A stretch of 64,000 nucleotides of DNA from Trichothermofontia sichuanensis B231 (GTDB lineage: Bacteria; Cyanobacteriota; Cyanobacteriia; B231). The stretch lies in assembly GCF_026240635.1 (NCBI RefSeq), contig NZ_CP110848.1, positions 560,501 to 624,500 of the forward strand, in the 5' to 3' direction. Made by a program: the position numbers and the translations under genes. A model generated the notes under the pieces. That model was not told the origin of the DNA and did no database searches. It saw only the letters and a program-made list of their open reading frames with translations. Position 1 is the first letter of the stretch. Every line of letters starts with the position of its first letter. Shown in pieces: positions 972 to 42,546 of the stretch.

Positions 972-1051
972 TCGGGATCATCCCCTCGCTACGAGCGATA
1001 ACGTTTGGAGTGATCATTTAATGATCATTTCGGGATCACTCTAGGAAAATC

Positions 1052-1163
1052 GGCTCTTCTGAGTTTATGGTGGGGGCGCTACGCGCCCCCACCATAAACT
1101 CAGCATTTGCGATCGTTTATTTGTAGCTGCTGATACTGCTTACCCCAAAATCCCAGAAGAACC
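1052..1163 (+). mobile_element. 112-bp ISL3-type MITE, copy 1, with 8-bp target duplication
   Basis: The element starts GGCTCTTCTG and ends CAGAAGAACC, so its termini are imperfect inverted repeats of about 21 bp. It is flanked by a perfect 8-bp direct repeat, GGAAAATC, at 1044-1051 and 1164-1171. GG(C/T)TCTTC termini and 8-bp duplications are the hallmarks of the ISL3 transposase family, so this is probably a non-autonomous relative. Inside is a perfect 21-bp hairpin stem (1059-1079 and 1083-1103) with a TAC loop. A second copy in reverse orientation lies at 42435-42546. No transposase gene is present in the window. Confidence 0.85.
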
Positions 1164-1336
1164 GGAAAATCATTGAGAGAGTATGGAGAGCATTGAGGAC
1201 GATTCAGGAATTGGGAACGTTAGGGTGCTGAGTCCAGTCAGATACCAGCGGTGTTGTTTGCGCTAGGGCATAATGGGGTAATGCTCCCTAGCGTATTGCG
1301 GTTGTCCGTGCGGTCTCTACCTTTCCCCACTCGATT

Positions 1337-12039: not shown

Positions 12040-15000
12040 CTACTGATCCACTCGCAACTTTTGGGCTTGGGGATGATACCGCAGGCGATCGCGAGCGGCT
12101 TGTAACCAATCTGACCAATTGCCGCCCCGCCAGAGGCTGATCGTGCGATCGGCGCTACTCATGGCAATCTTCTGGCCATCGGGGCTAAAGGCAACGGCTG
12201 ATACAAAATCGGTATGGGCCTGACAGGGAGAACCGATCGGGGCTTGGGCGGCCACATCCCAGAGGCAAAAACTCCCATTGGTGTAACCCACAAGCATCTG
12301 GCTGCCATCGGGACTGAAGGTGAGGGCGGAGATTGGGAGTTGCCCGTCCTGGGATAATGTGGCAATGGCCTGCCCCTGGGGGTCCCATAGCCGGAGCGTT
12401 CCATCCCAGCCACCAGAGGCGATCAGGTGACCATCGGGGCTAATGGCTACCCCCGTCACCGCCGCCGTATGCCCGTGGAAGGGGTGGCCGATGGGGTGGC
12501 CGTCCCGATCCCAGCGGCGGAGGGTGCCATCGGCACTGGCAGACAGGAAGTAGCTCCCATCGGGGCTAACTGCTAAGTCGGCCACATAGTGGGTATGACC
12601 TTGAAACGCAAACCGGGCTACGGGTTGCTGAGCCGCCACGGACCAACGGTAAATACGACCATCCGCACTCCCCGCCCATAACCACTGGTCATCCTGGCTA
12701 AAACACACACAGGCGATCGCAACGGCACTCTCTAGGCAATAATGATGCAGGCAATCGCCCGATCGGTTCCAGAGATAGACCTTGCCATCCCAGCTACTGG
12801 AAGCCACCAGGCGGCCATCATGACTGAAGGTAACGGCTGCGATAAAATCCGTATGGCCGAGCCACAGGGCAGGGGAGGTTGGATTCTGGAGGTCCCACAC
12901 GCGGAGGGTGCGATCCCACCCTCCTGATATCAGTTGAGTGCCATCGGGGCTAAAGGCGATCGCTTCCACCACATCCTCATGGCCTCGCAGGTGGGGACCC
13001 AGACGATTGCCCCAAATATCCCATACGCGGATCGTGCCATCGGCACTGGCGGATAGGGCTTGGTGACCGTCGGGGCTGAAGGCAACGGCTTCCACGTCAT
13101 CGGTGTGGCCGACCAGCGGTGGGCTGAGCAGATGCCCCCCGCGATCCCATAGGCGCAGGGTCATGTCCGCCCCCCCCGACAGGATCATCTGGCCATCGGG
13201 GCTAAAGGCAACGGCTTCCACACTATCACGATGACCCTGGAAAGGCAGGCCGAGCGCCTGTCCCTGCCGATCCCATAGCCGCAGGGTGCCGTCACTACTG
13301 GCGGAAACAATCACCTGACTATCGGGGCTAAAGGCTAACGCCGTAATCGCTGCCGTATGGGCAGTGATGGGTGGCACGCTCATCTGACCACTCAGGGTCC
13401 AGAGGCTCAGGGTTCCCTGGATCGTTCCCACTGCGATCGTGGTGCCATCGGGGCTACAGGCCACGGCCATCACCCCATCGGGAGCAATTTGCCAGAAGTC
13501 CTGGCGCAGGTTCCCGTACCGATCCCACAGGCGTAGACTACCATCCGCACTCGCCGAGAGAATGAACGCACCATCGGCGCTAAAGGTCACGGCGGTAATC
13601 AGGTCGGTGTGGCCTCGGAACGGTTCCGCGATCGCGTTACCGGCCAAGTCCCACAGGCGCAGCGTTCCATCCCAACTGCCCGAAACCATCAAGTCCCCCG
13701 TGGGGCTAACGGCGATTGCCGCGACCAAATCCTGATGGCCTGGTATCAGGGGGAGGAGTGCCCGACCCTGGCAATCCCAGCGACCCAAGATACCGTCCGC
13801 TCCCCCGGAAACCAGCCAGGTCCCCTCAGGACTAAGGGCAAAGGATGTGACACCGGCTGGGTGAGCCTGGAAACAATAGCGTTCACGGGTCACCTCCAGG
13901 ACTTGGCGAAGCAAGCCTTTGAAGGACAGCCAATCCCCAGGGGACAGCCAATGAGGGGCATGGTTAGCAGCAGCCAGGATCAGGAGTGCCCCTGCGACGG
14001 GGTGAGCTGCAAGGCGATCCTTGAGATCGGCGAGGGCAGGGAGTGACGGCACGGTAACTGGTCCAGGGACAGGGGCGGACGGCGAAACTGGGTCGAGCAC
14101 AGGCCAGCCCCGTGGTCGGAGGCCGGGATATTCAGGTAGCGTCTTCGCCGGAGAGTCGCCAATGTTCGGGGGCGGTGTGATGGCAGATTGGGTGGCGGGA
14201 ACCGGGGCTGGGAACGGTGCGACTTTCTGGAGCATCGGCTCGACGGTGAGGGGATGCGTGGTCAACCAATGGTTCAGTCGTTGCCACCGATCGCAGAGGA
14301 TTTCCTGACTCAACGCCACCCATACCCTGGGGCATCCCGTAGCCAGCTCGAACGATTGTCCTGGGGGAACCGAGGGGTGCACCGAGAGCAAACCAGCCTC
14401 CTTGAGGCGAGTGATCACCTGGCGAATTTGAGCCTGCTGGTGGGATAGGGAACCCAAGGCCAACAGGTCAGCCAAGGCACGGGGGCAACGGCATCGGTCA
14501 CCGGTCGGCCCGCGATCAACCAACGCTAGACAAAGACGTTGGGTCCAGACTTGCTCAGCAGGGGATAGGGTTGCATAGATCTGCTCGGCATAGGTGTTCA
14601 CCGCACCCGCTAAGCGGCCCATCTCGTTGTACCGCGAGTGCAAGAGTTGTCGCCGACACCGATCGCGGCGTTGCCACAATTGCAGCAGGGCAATTTGCAC
14701 CAGGGGTAAGGGCTGACTTTCGTGGTATCTGTCCGCCAGTAACCGGTCGAGTAAACCTGCTTCCAGACAATAGCCTTGCAGTTGGGCGGGTTTGGTAATG
14801 GCATCGATCCACTCATTGGGAGCGAGGGGAGGGAGCCAAACCGCTTGATGTTGCAGGACTTGAATCAGAGGGCTACTGCAAAACCACCCATCGAGATCCT
14901 CCGATCGCACCGTAACCACAACCGCAACCTGTCCTTGGGATGAAGCAGTGAGCTGGATCAATCCCTCCAGAAATCCCCTAAGCGGGTGTGAGCAAGCGCC

Positions 15001-19091: not shown

Positions 19092-19914
19092 AGGCAAGCG
19101 ATCGGGCAGAATTGGAACAGTCTGCATTTTTCCGGATCAGGGGCAGGCTGTAATGTTTACTGCAAGCAGGGGGAACCTTAAGACTATAGTCATTGTAATT
19201 TAGGCTGAAACAGCCCCCTCACCCCCAGCCCCTCTCCCGTTCTGGGAGAGAGGTGTCAAAAATTGTATCGTTCTTATTTGGATTGACCATAGGACCGAAG
19301 TCAGAAGTGATAGCACCGGGATACCCATACCGTTACCATCAGACAACGAGGGCAATCGGTAGCACTCGCCCCAAGACAGACAGGGCAAGGGTTACTACCC
19401 ATCGCGCTCGAAATTACGTGACGGAAGAATATAAGTTACGCATAATTACGGAGCGTTATTACCCTATTCTGTGTTATCTGTATAATTCTGCGGATTAAAT
19501 AAGGCGTGTTTCAACAACCCGCAAGTATTGACTCAGTGTCAGATGCGAAGTTGGAGGCGTTCTAAGCAATTAGGGATGCTGGAGTGCCTGTAAAACTGAG
19601 GCTCAGGCGGGATTGATGCTTACGAGGATTAACGGACTATCCAGAACCCATTGGTTGGCAAAGGGGAGCAGTTAGGCCAGAAGCCAGCCGTCCTTTCCCG
19701 ATCGGCAGGTGATATGATTTGACAAAACTTCATAAAGTCTCCTTGTTTTTCCCTTTACATTGCGCAATGCTATAGATTAATATCTCTCAACATGATTGAG
19801 ATGTGGGTTTAAGAAGGCGGTATTAAAGCTCGTGCACAGTTGATCGGAACCCAACGAGTGATAAAGTCCGACTCTGTAAAGTCCTCTAGCGTTAGCAGGT
19901 TATTAACCAGCACT
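19092..19914. other. Intergenic region carrying repeat copy c
   Basis: This 820-base stretch has no convincing gene apart from repeat copy c. The central part (19292-19500) contains an open frame of about 80 codons with unusual composition, judged non-coding. A short palindrome, TTGCGCAA, sits at about 19758 in an AT-rich zone that may contain the promoter of the next small gene. Confidence 0.4.
19185..19291 (+). repeat. Dispersed hairpin repeat, copy c
   Basis: This copy runs from TATAGTCATTGTAATTTAGG to GGATTGACCATA and has the same core as copies a and b (CCCTCACCCCCAGCCCCTCT and GGGAGAGAGG). It is near full length at 107 bp and is the cleanest copy for defining the consensus. Confidence 0.75.
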
Positions 19915-24299: not shown

Positions 24300-27200
24300 C
24301 TATACCGTGTTGTTGGCGGTCGTCTGTCCAGAGGGCTGCACGTACAGGAAACGCGCCATGATCTGATCCGGTTCTAGGTTGCCCTCAACGATCCCGATCA
24401 GTTCACCCCCATCGACAAAAATACCCAAACCAGGCGGACTGCCCTCAGGTGCAGGTCCCACACTGTAGTTCCGACCGGCCTGGAGACGGATAAAGTCTTC
24501 ACCCGGATTGAAGTCGGTGATCAGGGCATAGTCAGTGGCCCCCCTACCCCGATAGAAGACCCGCAGGCGATCGCCTAGGTCAAAGACATCGCGACCACCG
24601 CCACCGGTGAGGGTATCAATTTCGCCGACGCCCGCAGGCTCGGTGTTGGGGAAAATTTCAACCCCGATCAAGATATCATCCCCGTTGTCGCCATTGAGGG
24701 AGTCGTTGCCACGACCGCCAATCAGTTGGTCACGCCCCTTACCGCCATAGAGAATGTCATCCCCGTTGTCACCGTATACGGTGTCATTGTCGCGGTTGCC
24801 ATTGAGGAGGTCATTGCCTTCTCCCCCGCGCAGGGTGTCATCATCCTTGCCGCCGTAGAGGCTATCGTCCCCTTCGTTACCTTCTAGATAGTCGAAGCCC
24901 CGATTACCAAACTGCAAGTCGTTCCCGCGCCCGCCGTAGATGTCGTCATCGCAGTCAAGGCCATGCAGGGAGTCGTCGCCGTCCCAACCGAAGATCGTGT
25001 CGTTGTCAGCGGTGGCAAAAATCCGGTTGGGTAGCTCGGTCCCACGCAGAAACTCGCCTTCCTGACAACACTCAATACAATCTGGATTGGTGGTGTTACC
25101 GGGGATGTCTCCCTGGTTGTCGTCTGGGGGTGGCACGATCGGGGGTAGCTCTGGGGTTTCACCGTCGATCGGTGGCGCGATCGGGGGGATGCCACCTCCA
25201 CCCCCACTAGGCGGCACACGACTGCCTACCTCAACGGTGGTGGGATCAGTTCTACCCGGTTGTCTGGGATTGTCCGTAAAGATTGGCGGGAAGTTACCCC
25301 CCGTTATCGTTCCCTGGTTTTCGATCGTTGTTCCAGGTTCAGTACTAGTAGCGATCGTCACTTGGAAACGCAACTGGGTGGATGCCCCTGGTGCAAGGGT
25401 GCCCCCTAGCGTAGCATTAGCCCCCGTTCCCAATCGGAACGTTAGGCTACCGGTAAATTCAGCCTGATCATCACCACTCAGATCAGTTTTTGCCCCTGCA
25501 TTCGCGCCACTGATAATGGCCAAACTAGCCGGGACATAAACTGTATTCGTTGGCAAAGCATCCGTGAAAATTACGCCGGTCGCCGGTGCGGGCGCGGTTG
25601 CTGCATTGGCAACAGTAATGACATATTGCAGGACATCTCCTGGATCAGCCAAGCCATTGCCATTCAGGTCTTGGGCTAGAAATGCCTCCTTCAGAGCAGT
25701 TAGCCGAGGTCCACCACTAATCGTCGTCTCCTGCGGACTGGTGTTGTTGCCCGGAGTCGGATCACTCGTCCCTGAGGTGATGCTGGCAGTGTTGGTTAAG
25801 ATGGTGCCGTCGCTCAGGCTGGGGTTGAGGCTACCAATGACGGTGTAGGTAATCGCCTGACCCGCAGCCAGCGTGATGCCGGTATCGGCGATATTGCCAC
25901 TCCCACTCGTCTCAAAACCACTGCCATTACCAACGGCGGTCCAGGTGACGCCCGTCAAACCGGCGGGGAAGGTATCACTGACGGTAGCATCGGTCACCGT
26001 CCCGGCCCCCACATTGCTGGCCACAATCGTGTAGGTCAATAACCCACCGGCACTGGCCGGGTCAGGACTATCGGTCTTGATGATACTCAGGTCGGCGCTG
26101 GTGCTAATCGTCGTCTCCTGCGGACTGGTGTTGTTGCCCGGAGTCGGATCACTCGTCCCTGAGGTGATGCTGGCAGTGTTGGTTAAGATGGTGCCGTCGC
26201 TCAGGCTGGGGTTGAGGCTACCAATGACGGTGTAGGTAATCGCCTGACCCGCAGCCAGCGTGATGCCGGTATCGGCGATATTGCCACTCCCACTCGTCTC
26301 AAAACCACTGCCATTACCAACGGCGGTCCAGGTGACGCCCGTCAAACCGGCGGGGAAGGTATCACTGACGGTAGCATCGGTCACCGTCCCGGCCCCCACA
26401 TTGCTGGCCACAATCGTGTAGGTCAATAACCCACCGGCACTAGCCGGGTCAGGACTATCGGTCTTGATGATACTCAGGTCGGCGCTGGTGCTGATGGTCG
26501 TCTCCTGCGGACTGGTGTTGTTGCCCGGAGTCGGATCACTCGTCCCTGAGGTGATGCTGGCAGTGTTGGTTAAGATGGTGCCGTCGCTCAGGCTGGGGTT
26601 GAGGCTACCAATGACGGTGTAGGTAATCGCCTGACCCGCAGCCAGCGTGATGCCGGTATCGGCGATATTGCCACTCCCACTCGTCTCAAAACCACTGCCA
26701 TTACCAACGGCGGTCCAGGTGACGCCCGTCAAACCGGCGGGGAAGGTATCACTGACGGTAGCATCGGTCACCGTCCCGGCCCCCACATTGCTGGCCACAA
26801 TCGTGTAGGTCAATAACCCACCGGCACTGGCCGGGTCAGGACTATCGGTCTTGATGATACTCAGGTCGGCGCTGGTGCTAATCGTCGTCTCCTGCGGACT
26901 GGTGTTGTTGCCCGGAGTCGGATCACTCGTCCCTGAGGTGATGCTGGCAGTGTTGGTTAAGATGGTGCCGTCGCTCAGGCTGGGGTTGAGGCTACCAATG
27001 ACGGTGTAGGTAATCGCCTGACCCGCAGCCAGCGTGATGCCGGTATCGGCGATATTGCCACTCCCACTCGTCTCAAAACCACTGCCATTACCAACGGCGG
27101 TCCAGGTGACGCCCGTCAAACCGGCGGGGAAGGTATCACTGACGGTAGCATCGGTCACCGTCCCGGCCCCCACATTGCTGGCCACAATCGTGTAGGTCAA

Positions 27201-30200
27201 TAACCCACCGGCACTAGCCGGGTCAGGACTATCGGTCTTGATGATACTCAGGTCGGCGCTGGTGCTGATGGTCGTCTCCTGCGGACTGGTGTTGTTGCCC
27301 GGAGTCGGATCACTCGTCCCTGAGGTGATGCTGGCAGTGTTGGTTAAGATGGTGCCGTCGCTCAGGCTGGGGTTGAGGCTACCAATGACGGTGTAGGTAA
27401 TCGCCTGACCCGCAGCCAGCGTGATGCCGGTATCGGCGATATTGCCACTCCCACTCGTCTCAAAACCACTGCCATTACCAACGGCGGTCCAGGTGACGCC
27501 CGTCAAACCGGCGGGGAAGGTATCACTGACGGTAGCATCGGTCACCGTCCCGGCCCCCACATTGCTGGCCACAATCGTGTAGGTCAATAACCCACCGGCA
27601 CTGGCCGGGTCAGGACTATCGGTCTTGATGATACTCAGGTCGGCGCTGGTGCTAATCGTCGTCTCCTGCGGACTGGTGTTGTTGCCCGGAGTCGGATCAC
27701 TCGTCCCTGAGGTGATGCTGGCAGTGTTGGTTAAGATGGTGCCGTCGCTCAGGCTGGGGTTGAGGCTACCAATGACGGTGTAGGTAATCGCCTGACCCGC
27801 AGCCAGCGTGATGCCGGTATCGGCGATATTGCCACTCCCACTCGTCTCAAAACCACTGCCATTACCAACGGCGGTCCAGGTGACGCCCGTCAAACCGGCG
27901 GGGAAGGTATCACTGACGGTAGCATCGGTCACCGTCCCGGCCCCCACATTGCTGGCCACAATCGTGTAGGTCAATAACCCACCGGCACTGGCCGGGTCAG
28001 GACTATCGGTCTTGATGATACTCAGGTCGGCGCTGGTGCTGATGGTCGTCTCCTGCGGACTGGTGTTGTTGCCCGGAGTCGGATCACTCGTCCCTGAGGT
28101 GATGCTGGCAGTGTTGGTTAAGATGGTGCCGTCGCTCAGGCTGGGGTTGAGGCTACCAATGACGGTGTAGGTAATCGCCTGACCCGCAGCCAGCGTGATG
28201 CCGGTATCGGCGATATTGCCACTCCCACTCGTCTCAAAACCACTGCCATTACCAACGGCGGTCCAGGTGACGCCCGTCAAACCGGCGGGGAAGGTATCAC
28301 TGACGGTAGCATCGGTCACCGTCCCGGCCCCCACATTGCTGGCCACAATCGTGTAGGTCAATAACCCACCGGCACTAGCCGGGTCAGGGGCATCCGTCTT
28401 GATGACGCTCAGGTCGGCGCTGGTGCTGATGGTCGTCTCCTGCGGACTGGTGTTGTTGCCCGGAGTCGGATCACTCGTCCCTGAGGTGATGCTGGCAGTG
28501 TTGGTTAAGATGGTGCCGTCGCTCAGGCTGGGGTTGAGGCTACCAATGACGGTGTAGGTAATCGCCTGACCCGCAGCCAGCGTGATGCCGGTATCGGCGA
28601 TATTGCCACTCCCACTCGTCTCAAAACCACTGCCATTACCAACGGCGGTCCAGGTGACGCCCGTCAAACCGGCGGGGAAGGTATCACTGACGGTAGCATC
28701 GGTCACCGTCCCGGCCCCCACATTGCTGGCCACAATCGTGTAGGTCAATAACCCACCGGCACTAGCCGGGTCAGGACTATCGGTCTTGATGATACTCAGG
28801 TCGGCGCTGGTGCTGATGGTCGTCTCCTGCGGACTGGTGTTGTTGCCCGGAGTCGGATCACTCGTCCCTGAGGTGATGCTGGCAGTGTTGGTTAAGATGG
28901 TGCCGTCGCTCAGGCTGGGGTTGAGGCTACCAATGACGGTGTAGGTAATCGCCTGACCCGCAGCCAGCGTGATGCCGGTATCGGCGATATTGCCACTCCC
29001 ACTCGTCTCAAAACCACTGCCATTACCAACGGCGGTCCAGGTGACGCCCGTCAAACCGGCGGGGAAGGTATCACTGACGGTAGCATCGGTCACCGTCCCG
29101 GCCCCCACATTGCTGGCCACAATCGTGTAGGTCAATAACCCACCGGCACTAGCCGGGTCAGGGGCATCCGTCTTGATGACGCTCAGGTCGGCTGCCAGGT
29201 TGACGCTCGTTGGCTGGGTAGTGGTGTTGTTGCTTGGATTGGGATCACTCGTCCCTGAGGTGATGGTAGCGACATTAGTTAGAGTGCTGCCAGGGGTAAC
29301 TGTGGATGAAACACTACCAATGACGGTGTAGGTGATGGTCCCTCCAACGGGCATTTGGATGCCGGTGTCGTTGATGTTGCCCGTACCACTCGGTTCAAAG
29401 CCATCACTGGTTGTGCTGGTGGCAGTCCAACTGATACTTGTCAGCCCTGGGGGGAAGGTATCGCTGACGGTACCGTTGATAATTGAATTCGGCCCAGCAT
29501 TACTGACAACAATTGTGTAAGTTAACAATCCCCCTGGCGCAACCGGATCAGGATTATCAGTCTTGGTAATTCTTAAGTCAGCACTGGTTGGGAGCGTAAT
29601 TCCCCTAGCAAAAATGGCCCCACTGGCAACCAAATCTAAACCACCAGCCGCCTCTGTAGTATCTGTTGGGAAGAAGGTGGTGTTGACATTGACCAGGTTA
29701 TTGGGATCACCCGATGCCAAGACACGAGTGACCGTATCGCGCCCAAAGAGTGAGTAGCCGTAAAATATCTGACTAGGCGCAATATCGGGGAAGTCACTGA
29801 ACGGGAAAAAGATCGATCGGATAGTTTGACCGGTAACGCGGGCGGAGATACGGGCGTCTGGATCAGTACTGGGATCTTGGCGAAGTACGTCCGTTGTGAT
29901 GCCAATACCCGAATTCCCCCAGTAGCCAACCGTCACCTCAATGGGAGTACCGTAGGAGATTGGATTACCAGCACCATCTACGGCTAGGATTGGCGCAATG
30001 CCAAATGGGTCATTACCGCCGCGCTCGAGGACCAGGAACCCGATGTTGCTTAAATCAGCAGCAAGGCCGGGGGCCGTGATGCCAGAGGGGCTTAGGAAAT
30101 CTACCCGTTCGATATTGTTGTTATTACCCTGTCCATTACCCTGATTCGTGAAAATGTTATCGGTTCCCCGATTGATATTGATGCCCAGGAGCGCCTGCTC

Positions 30201-34278: not shown

Positions 34279-34680
34279 AGCCGCCGCCTGTGCTGCTGGA
34301 ACACCCCGTCTTCGCCCTAAAGCTCGACCAACGAACCGCTGGGACCGCTAAAATAGCAATAATTTGTGCCCTAGCCATCCTTAAGTGGATACCGATGGCC
34401 CTCACCCCCGGCCCCTCTCCCACAAGGGGCGAGGGGAGTTAGGTGGCCCTCACCCCCGGCCCCTCTCCCACAAGGGGCGAGGGGAGTTAGGTGGCCCTCA
34501 CCCCCGGCCCCTCTCCCACAAGGGGCGAGGGGAGCTAGATTTGGTCTCCCTTCTCCTGCCCTAGGAGAAGGGGTTAGAGGATGAGGGCCTCCCGTTGAAC
34601 GATACCTACCTGCTTAAGGGCGCTGCTAGGGTATGGGTGATCTCCCCCGTCTGTCAATCCTATCCATTTGCATGAGATCG
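34279..34680. repeat. Three tandem 48-bp G/C-rich repeats and flanks
   Basis: From 34397 to about 34540 a 48-bp unit (GGCCCTCACCCCCGGCCCCT and the complementary AAGGGGCGAGGGGAG) is repeated three times, each able to form a hairpin. A degenerate fourth unit follows at 34541-34590. The units share the C/T-rich and G/A-rich arms of the dispersed repeats elsewhere but lack their TATAGTCATTG ends. No gene is seen. They probably end the upstream transcript. Confidence 0.75.
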
Positions 34681-38796: not shown

Positions 38797-38873
38797 TGTC
38801 TAAGCCCCTCTCCCGCTCTGGGAGAGGGGTTGGGGATGAGGGGGCTGTTTCAGCCTGAATTGCAGTGACTATA
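38797..38873 (-). repeat. Dispersed hairpin repeat, copy d (partial)
   Basis: This is an inverted copy with the hairpin arms CCCCTCTCCC/GGGAGAGGGG and the end CAGCCTGAATTGCAGTGACT. The other end is lost; only a degenerate GATATCGTTATTTCAGATTAG remains upstream at 38769-38789. Confidence 0.65.
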
Positions 38874-39718: not shown

Positions 39719-39855
39719 TATAGTCATTGCAATTTAGACTGAAACAGCACCCTCACCCCCCACCCTTCTCCCAGAGCGGGAGAGAGATTTAGGGTGAGGG
39801 CTGCCCCTAACTTACCCAGGTAAAACTGTACTTTATGATTGAGGTAAAGGCTGTA
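39719..39855 (+). repeat. Dispersed hairpin repeat, copy e (composite)
   Basis: It begins with the family end TATAGTCATTGCAATTTAG and a C-rich arm. After GGGAGAGAGATTTAGGG it switches to the end of the second element type, GGTAAAACTGTACTTTATGA, and GAGGTAAAGGCTGT. It looks like a recombinant of two related elements. Confidence 0.65.
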
Positions 39856-42434: not shown

Positions 42435-42546
42435 GGTTCTTCTGGGATTTTGGGGTAAGCAGTATCAGCAGCTACAAATAAACGATCGCAAATGCTGAGT
42501 TTATGGTGGGGGCGCTACGCGCCCCCACCATAAACTCAGAAGAGCC
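42435..42546 (-). mobile_element. 112-bp ISL3-type MITE, copy 2
   Basis: This is the reverse complement of copy 1 (1052-1163), base for base apart from the 3-base loop of the central hairpin. The stem is 42495-42515 and 42519-42539. Both copies have TAC in the loop on the plus strand although the rest of the element is inverted, so the loop is flipped. The flanks (ATAAAATT and AGAGATTG) do not form a target duplication. It sits 23 bases before the start codon of an AT-rich gene. Confidence 0.85.

What the first reader, a model, noticed from the sequence alone, without database searches (positions are those of the whole stretch)
42435..42546. The hairpin loop of the MITE is flipped between the two copies
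Copies 1 and 2 are exact reverse complements over 112 bp except for the 3-nt loop. Both read TAC on the plus strand, so relative to the element one has TAC and the other GTA. A simple point mutation path would need two changes at once. Inversion of the palindrome core (cruciform resolution or template switching across the arms) explains it in one step.
Basis: partly seen in the sequence, partly recalled or inferred. Interest (0 to 1): 0.65.

Follow-up and report, generated by a model that had tools for sequence, protein, structure and literature searches.

The report
Flipped hairpin loop in cyanobacterial MITE
A small mobile DNA element scattered through this cyanobacterial genome carries a hairpin whose three-base tip occurs in both orientations in otherwise identical copies, which shows that the tip flips over in place, a known kind of copying error seen here in over a hundred copies at once.

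Summary
The window holds two copies of a 112-bp MITE (1052-1163 and, inverted, 42435-42546), identical except for the 3-nt loop of a 21-bp-arm palindrome: TAC in one, GTA in the other. Three bases differ, not two.

Genome-wide I oriented 113 copies: 70 TAC, 41 GTA, 2 ATA, no stepwise intermediates. Among 45 copies identical outside the loop, 27 are TAC and 18 GTA; in a second subtype of 29 identical copies, 23 and 6. Both states also occur in a third subfamily and in copies with intact 8-bp target duplications. No dependence on strand or replichore was found.

It is not specific to this MITE. An unrelated hairpin repeat in the same genome shows loop AGAGC (42) and its exact reverse complement GCTCT (14) among 100 listed copies. 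A related MITE family in another cyanobacterium has TCA/TGA and TCC/GGA.

Best explanation: in-place inversion of the palindrome centre by polymerase template switching between the arms, as published for yeast spacers, rRNA hairpin loops and chloroplast palindromes. Cruciform resolution is not favoured. How many flips occurred, and whether before or after insertion, stays open because no close relative was available. New instance of a known mutational kind.

The parts
1052..1163 (+). MITE copy 1 (type A, 112 bp), ends GGCTCTTCTGAG and CCCAGAAGAACC; element-frame loop TAC
1044..1051 (.). left 8-bp target-site duplication GGAAAATC of copy 1
   Evidence: sequence
1164..1171 (.). right 8-bp target-site duplication GGAAAATC of copy 1
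   Evidence: sequence
1059..1103 (.). palindrome of copy 1: 21-bp perfect arms (1059-1079, 1083-1103)
   Evidence: single-strand DNA fold -28.5 kcal/mol, z -7.3
1080..1082 (+). loop TAC of copy 1
42435..42546 (-). MITE copy 2 (type A, 112 bp), inverted; element-frame loop GTA; no exact target-site duplication
42495..42539 (.). palindrome of copy 2: 21-bp perfect arms
42516..42518 (-). loop of copy 2 (TAC on +, GTA in element frame)
19239..19243 (+). loop GTTCT of an unrelated hairpin repeat (CCCTCACCCCCAGCCCCTCTCCC-loop-GGGAGAG), in the inverted class relative to AGAAC/AGAGC
39773..39777 (+). loop AGAGC (common orientation) of another copy of the same unrelated repeat
38815..38819 (-). loop AGAGC (common orientation in the repeat's own frame) of a third copy of the unrelated repeat

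Best explanation
The element is a non-autonomous 112-bp MITE of ISL3 type. Its left end carries a 45-bp palindrome (21-bp arms, 3-nt loop). During DNA synthesis through the palindrome the growing strand switches to the complementary arm, copies the loop in the reverse sense and switches back, leaving arms unchanged and the loop inverted. Shown: both loop states in copies identical elsewhere, in several subfamilies, in copies with intact target duplications, with no stepwise intermediates, and in unrelated hairpin repeats. Inferred: that the agent is polymerase template switching (most likely to the other strand of the fork) rather than short-arm recombination, and that the flip has happened repeatedly rather than once per subfamily.
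For: 113 oriented copies: TAC 70, GTA 41, ATA 2. 45 copies identical outside the loop: 27 TAC, 18 GTA; 29 identical type-B copies: 23 TAC, 6 GTA. TSD-bearing copies alone: A 27/14, B 24/9. The F3 subfamily has both states. Private substitutions are about 0.0015-0.0018 per site per copy, so three independent loop changes in one copy are expected about 1e-6 times in the set. An unrelated hairpin family in the same genome gives a two-peaked distance of loops from AGAGC (0:42, 1:22, 2:6, 3:2, 4:11, 5:17), with 14 exact inversions GCTCT and 7 more within one base. A related MITE in G007: TCA 6, TGA 4, GGA 1, TAA 1 oriented copies, plus TCC. GCTCT against AGAGC also in G005 and G006. Published spacer inversions between perfect arms (PMC8604942), loop inversions in rRNA hairpins (PMC8794818), recurrent chloroplast palindrome inversions (PMC2903610).
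Against: No pair of orthologous or duplicated insertions with opposite loops was found, so no flip is caught at one fixed site. No association with strand or with any replichore division, which neither supports nor excludes a replication error. Recombination between copies seems to occur (all 4 B-left/A-right chimeras lack TSDs) and could spread a loop state without new flips.
Confidence: 0.75

Rival explanations
1. Two (or a few) source elements: the loop inverted once or a few times in the past, and both forms then transposed, so the present mixture is mostly inheritance and not recurrent flipping. This is compatible with template switching as the cause of the rare inversions; it differs on how often and when.
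For: No shared variant outside the loop separates the two states within type A or B, so the data cannot exclude one flip per subfamily. TAC is in excess in type B (26 to 9, binomial p 0.006 against equal frequencies), so flipping is not at equilibrium there.
Against: Both states occur in A, B, F3 and chimeric haplotypes, so several flips or loop exchange are needed in any case. An unrelated repeat shows the same.
Confidence: 0.35
2. Recombination or gene conversion between copies aligned in the inverted register through the 21-bp arms swaps the loop orientation.
For: Chimeric copies without target duplications suggest that copies recombine (Fisher p 0.0014). Several dozen identical copies lie in each orientation.
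Against: Exchange through the palindrome in inverted register with crossover should create double-left and double-right elements; only two double-left cases were seen and no double-right was seen among the copies examined. 21 bp is short for RecA-dependent recombination (general knowledge). The unrelated repeat flips with roughly 10-bp arms.
Confidence: 0.13
3. Ordinary point mutations in a fast-changing loop.
For: Two copies carry ATA, so loop substitutions occur. In G007 TCA to TGA needs only one change.
Against: TAC to GTA needs three changes and no intermediate is seen in 113 copies. AGAGC to GCTCT needs five and the distance distribution has two peaks.
Confidence: 0.02
4. Assembly or sequencing artefact at the hairpin.
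For: GC-rich palindromes in many identical copies are hard to polish; no reads were available.
Against: Single-contig genome, sharp two-state pattern at more than a hundred sites, same pattern in another repeat and in other separately assembled genomes.
Confidence: 0.04

Closest known systems
Inverted-repeat spacer inversion by template switching in Saccharomyces cerevisiae (Abraham and Hazkani-Covo 2021, PMC8604942)
   Same: Perfect short arms kept, 2-5 nt spacer replaced by its reverse complement, described as reversible and recurrent; 3-nt examples such as ttc/gaa.
   Different: There inferred on a strain tree in coding genes; here seen across many paralogous copies of a bacterial mobile element, without strain comparison.
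Loop inversion in rRNA hairpins through template switching (PMC8794818)
   Same: Loop replaced by its reverse complement with stem intact.
   Different: There 69 candidate cases over rRNA trees, mostly near-self-complementary 4-nt loops; here one element with about 40% and 25% of copies in the minority state in its two main subtypes.
Small hairpin-associated inversions in chloroplast DNA, e.g. trnH-psbA (PMC2903610; Kelchner and Wendel 1996 cited therein)
   Same: Loop of a palindrome occurs in two orientations, highly homoplastic, even within species.
   Different: Single orthologous locus with a 25-27 bp loop; here a 3-nt loop in a dispersed MITE of a cyanobacterium.
MITEs of the ISL3 insertion-sequence family
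   Same: 8-bp target duplications (the ISL3 value is from general knowledge), GGCTCTTC-type ends shared with the genome's only ISL3 transposase remnant.
   Different: One end carries an internal perfect palindrome; no intact ISL3 transposase was found in this genome.

Membership tests
MITE (non-autonomous miniature inverted-repeat element) | short, no room for a transposase gene, many near-identical copies | tested here: met
   112 bp in 98 of 106 bounded copies, 45 and 29 identical copies outside the loop; 106 full-type copies
MITE (non-autonomous miniature inverted-repeat element) | terminal inverted repeats | tested here: met
   left and right ends match at 15 of the first 20 bases
MITE (non-autonomous miniature inverted-repeat element) | target-site duplication | tested here: met
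   exact 8-bp duplication in 80 and 7-bp in 3 of 106 bounded copies
ISL3-type element | ends matching those of an ISL3 insertion sequence | tested here: met
   MITE right end aligns to the end beside the ISL3 transposase in L008, score 57 against shuffle mean 20.5, sd 4.2; Pfam Zn_ribbon_ISL3, HTH_Tnp_ISL3, DDE_Tnp_ISL3
ISL3-type element | mobilised by an ISL3 transposase | not testable with these tools
   only one transposase remnant is present and it is broken
Inverted-repeat spacer inversion | spacer replaced by its exact reverse complement while arms are unchanged | tested here: met
Inverted-repeat spacer inversion | inversion seen at one orthologous site between strains | tested here: inconclusive
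   only class-level relatives are held; flank comparison of paralogous copies found no informative pair in the output shown, which was cut
Inverted-repeat spacer inversion | caused by polymerase template switching | not testable with these tools
   needs a mutation assay

The most novel reading that the evidence does not exclude
The loop flips back and forth after insertion at each site, at a rate hundreds of times the per-site substitution rate (about 550-fold for type A and 200-fold for type B if copies form a star and TAC is ancestral), so the MITE hairpins are a genome-wide set of reversible binary marks that record replication template switching.
Probability: 0.35. Interest if true: 0.55.

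Novelty: new member of a known kind. Interest (0 to 1): 0.38.

Why it matters
Inversions in hairpin loops are usually documented one locus at a time. Here one genome offers more than a hundred copies of the same hairpin with a readable orientation, plus a second family with hundreds of copies, so the rate and sequence rules of loop inversion in a bacterium could be measured from ordinary sequencing of one strain. It also warns that such loops should not be read as point-mutation differences when dating or clustering MITE copies.

Tried and rejected
Replichore or fork-direction dependence of the + strand loop: none (permutation p about 0.92). Clustering of loop state along the chromosome: none for A, weak for B (p 0.02, one of several tests, not relied on). 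Shared insertion sites with opposite loops: in the all-against-all flank comparison the only pair abutting the element in register was 3315365/3726756, a homologous repeat hit by two different element types (output cut in the middle, so not exhaustive). Close relatives: none held in genus or family; one other class member (G007) has the related palindrome in numbers. Viral and GTDB contig scans for exact matches: none. Reciprocal flank partners for TSD-less copies: only one 7-of-8 match, not convincing. Apparent loop flips in G003 and G073 were set aside because some sites match the pattern on both strands. A first typing of copies failed through an off-by-one error and was replaced; a first regular expression for the unrelated repeat was wrong and replaced.

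Full report
Observation. The two window segments 1052-1163 (+) and 42435-42546 (-) are copies of one 112-bp element and are identical when aligned in the element's frame, except for the three bases in the loop of a 45-bp palindrome. The loop reads TAC in copy 1 and GTA in copy 2. The perfect arm is 21 bp in 68 and 20 bp in 38 of 113 copies examined, and the element folds as single-stranded DNA at -28.5 kcal/mol, far below shuffles.

The element. The window lies at 560501-624500 of a single-contig 4.44-Mb genome. The core palindrome occurs 147 times there, against 3 for the reversed control, and 106 copies with the full asymmetric right part were counted. I fetched and oriented 113 copies; about 34 of the 147 cores, mostly short or degenerate forms, were not examined. 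Ends are GGCTCTTCTG.. and ..CAGAAGAACC or ..GAGCC. 80 of 106 bounded copies have an exact 8-bp target duplication and 3 more have 7 bp; copy 1 has GGAAAATC on both sides, copy 2 has none. The MITE's right end resembles the terminal sequence beside an ISL3-family transposase remnant (L008), so I call it an ISL3-type MITE.

Loop orientation. In the element frame: TAC 70, GTA 41, ATA 2. Ignoring the loop, 45 copies of type A are identical and split 27 TAC / 18 GTA; 29 type-B copies are identical and split 23 / 6. Types A and B differ at 7 positions. A third, more diverged subfamily (F3) also has both, as do A/B chimeric haplotypes. Restricting to copies with intact target duplications leaves A 27/14 and B 24/9. 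Element strand does not matter (A: + 15 TAC/10 GTA, - 18/12), and no placement of a replication origin gives an association.

Inversion or substitution. Private substitutions in these copies run at about 0.0015-0.0018 per site per copy. Three changes in one loop would be expected about 1e-6 times in the whole set, yet 41 copies show exactly the reverse complement and none shows an intermediate. Inversion of the palindrome centre is the economical reading. How far into the perfectly matched arms the inverted segment extends cannot be seen.

Generality. An unrelated hairpin repeat in the same genome (CCCTCACCCCCARCCCCTCTCCC-5 nt-GGGAGAG, 476 oriented matches) has loops AGAGC (42 of the 100 listed) and GCTCT (14), its exact reverse complement. 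Distance from AGAGC has two peaks, at 0-1 and 4-5, and 5 of 11 distinct distant loops lie within one base of the inversion against 0.46 in shuffles. Individual GCTCT copies read with both flanks are correctly oriented. A related MITE family in G007, a different family of the same class, has element-frame loops TCA 6, TGA 4, GGA 1, TAA 1 among 12 oriented copies, plus TCC in L107; TCC/GGA needs three substitutions, TCA/TGA only one. G005 and G006 also hold both AGAGC and GCTCT. So the process belongs to hairpins in general and not to this MITE's transposition.

Mechanism. Published work describes this outcome: spacer inversion between perfect inverted repeats through intermolecular template switching in yeast (PMC8604942), loop inversions in rRNA hairpins (PMC8794818), recurrent inversions at chloroplast palindromes (PMC2903610). 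I infer the same here. Cruciform resolution would give hairpin-ended breaks, so I do not favour it. Recombination between copies seems to happen: all four B-left/A-right chimeras lack target duplications. It may move loop states around, but it is not needed for copies with intact duplications, and the unrelated repeat flips too.

What stays open. Without close relatives or reads, I cannot tell many recent flips from a few old flips that were then amplified. A conservative minimum is one flip in A/B, one in F3, one in the unrelated repeat and one in G007. If copies are a star and TAC is ancestral, flips per copy would be 0.84 (A) and 0.36 (B), hundreds of times the substitution rate per site; this is conditional, not shown.

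Noticed in passing
L008:729-1640 (G000:C1:3638791-3639702): The genome's only ISL3 transposase match (1 hit) is a remnant: reading frame broken, DDE domain truncated, and interrupted by a MITE copy with its own 8-bp duplication TGACTTAT. The MITE family therefore seems to have no intact ISL3 partner in this genome.
   Followed up: partly
L008:680-728: A left-half MITE hairpin abuts the left terminus of that ISL3 remnant directly, possibly a trace of how the hairpin end arose.
   Followed up: no
G000:C1:780389, 1858134, 1867083, 2096504: All four B-left/A-right chimeric MITE copies lack target duplications (Fisher p 0.0014), suggesting ectopic recombination between copies.
   Followed up: partly
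G000:C1:2424461-2424513 and 3949110-3949162: Two double-left, fully palindromic short forms of the element; one carries loop TAT, the reverse complement of the ATA loop seen in two full-length copies.
   Followed up: no
window 25717-29112: Nine 387-bp tandem repeats, 99-100% identical over the 300 nt compared.
   Followed up: no
window 34396-34539: Three 48-bp tandem copies carrying another hairpin with loop ACAAG.
   Followed up: no
window 12167-13740: Array of 126-bp spaced diverged repeats, pattern of a repeat-protein gene.
   Followed up: no
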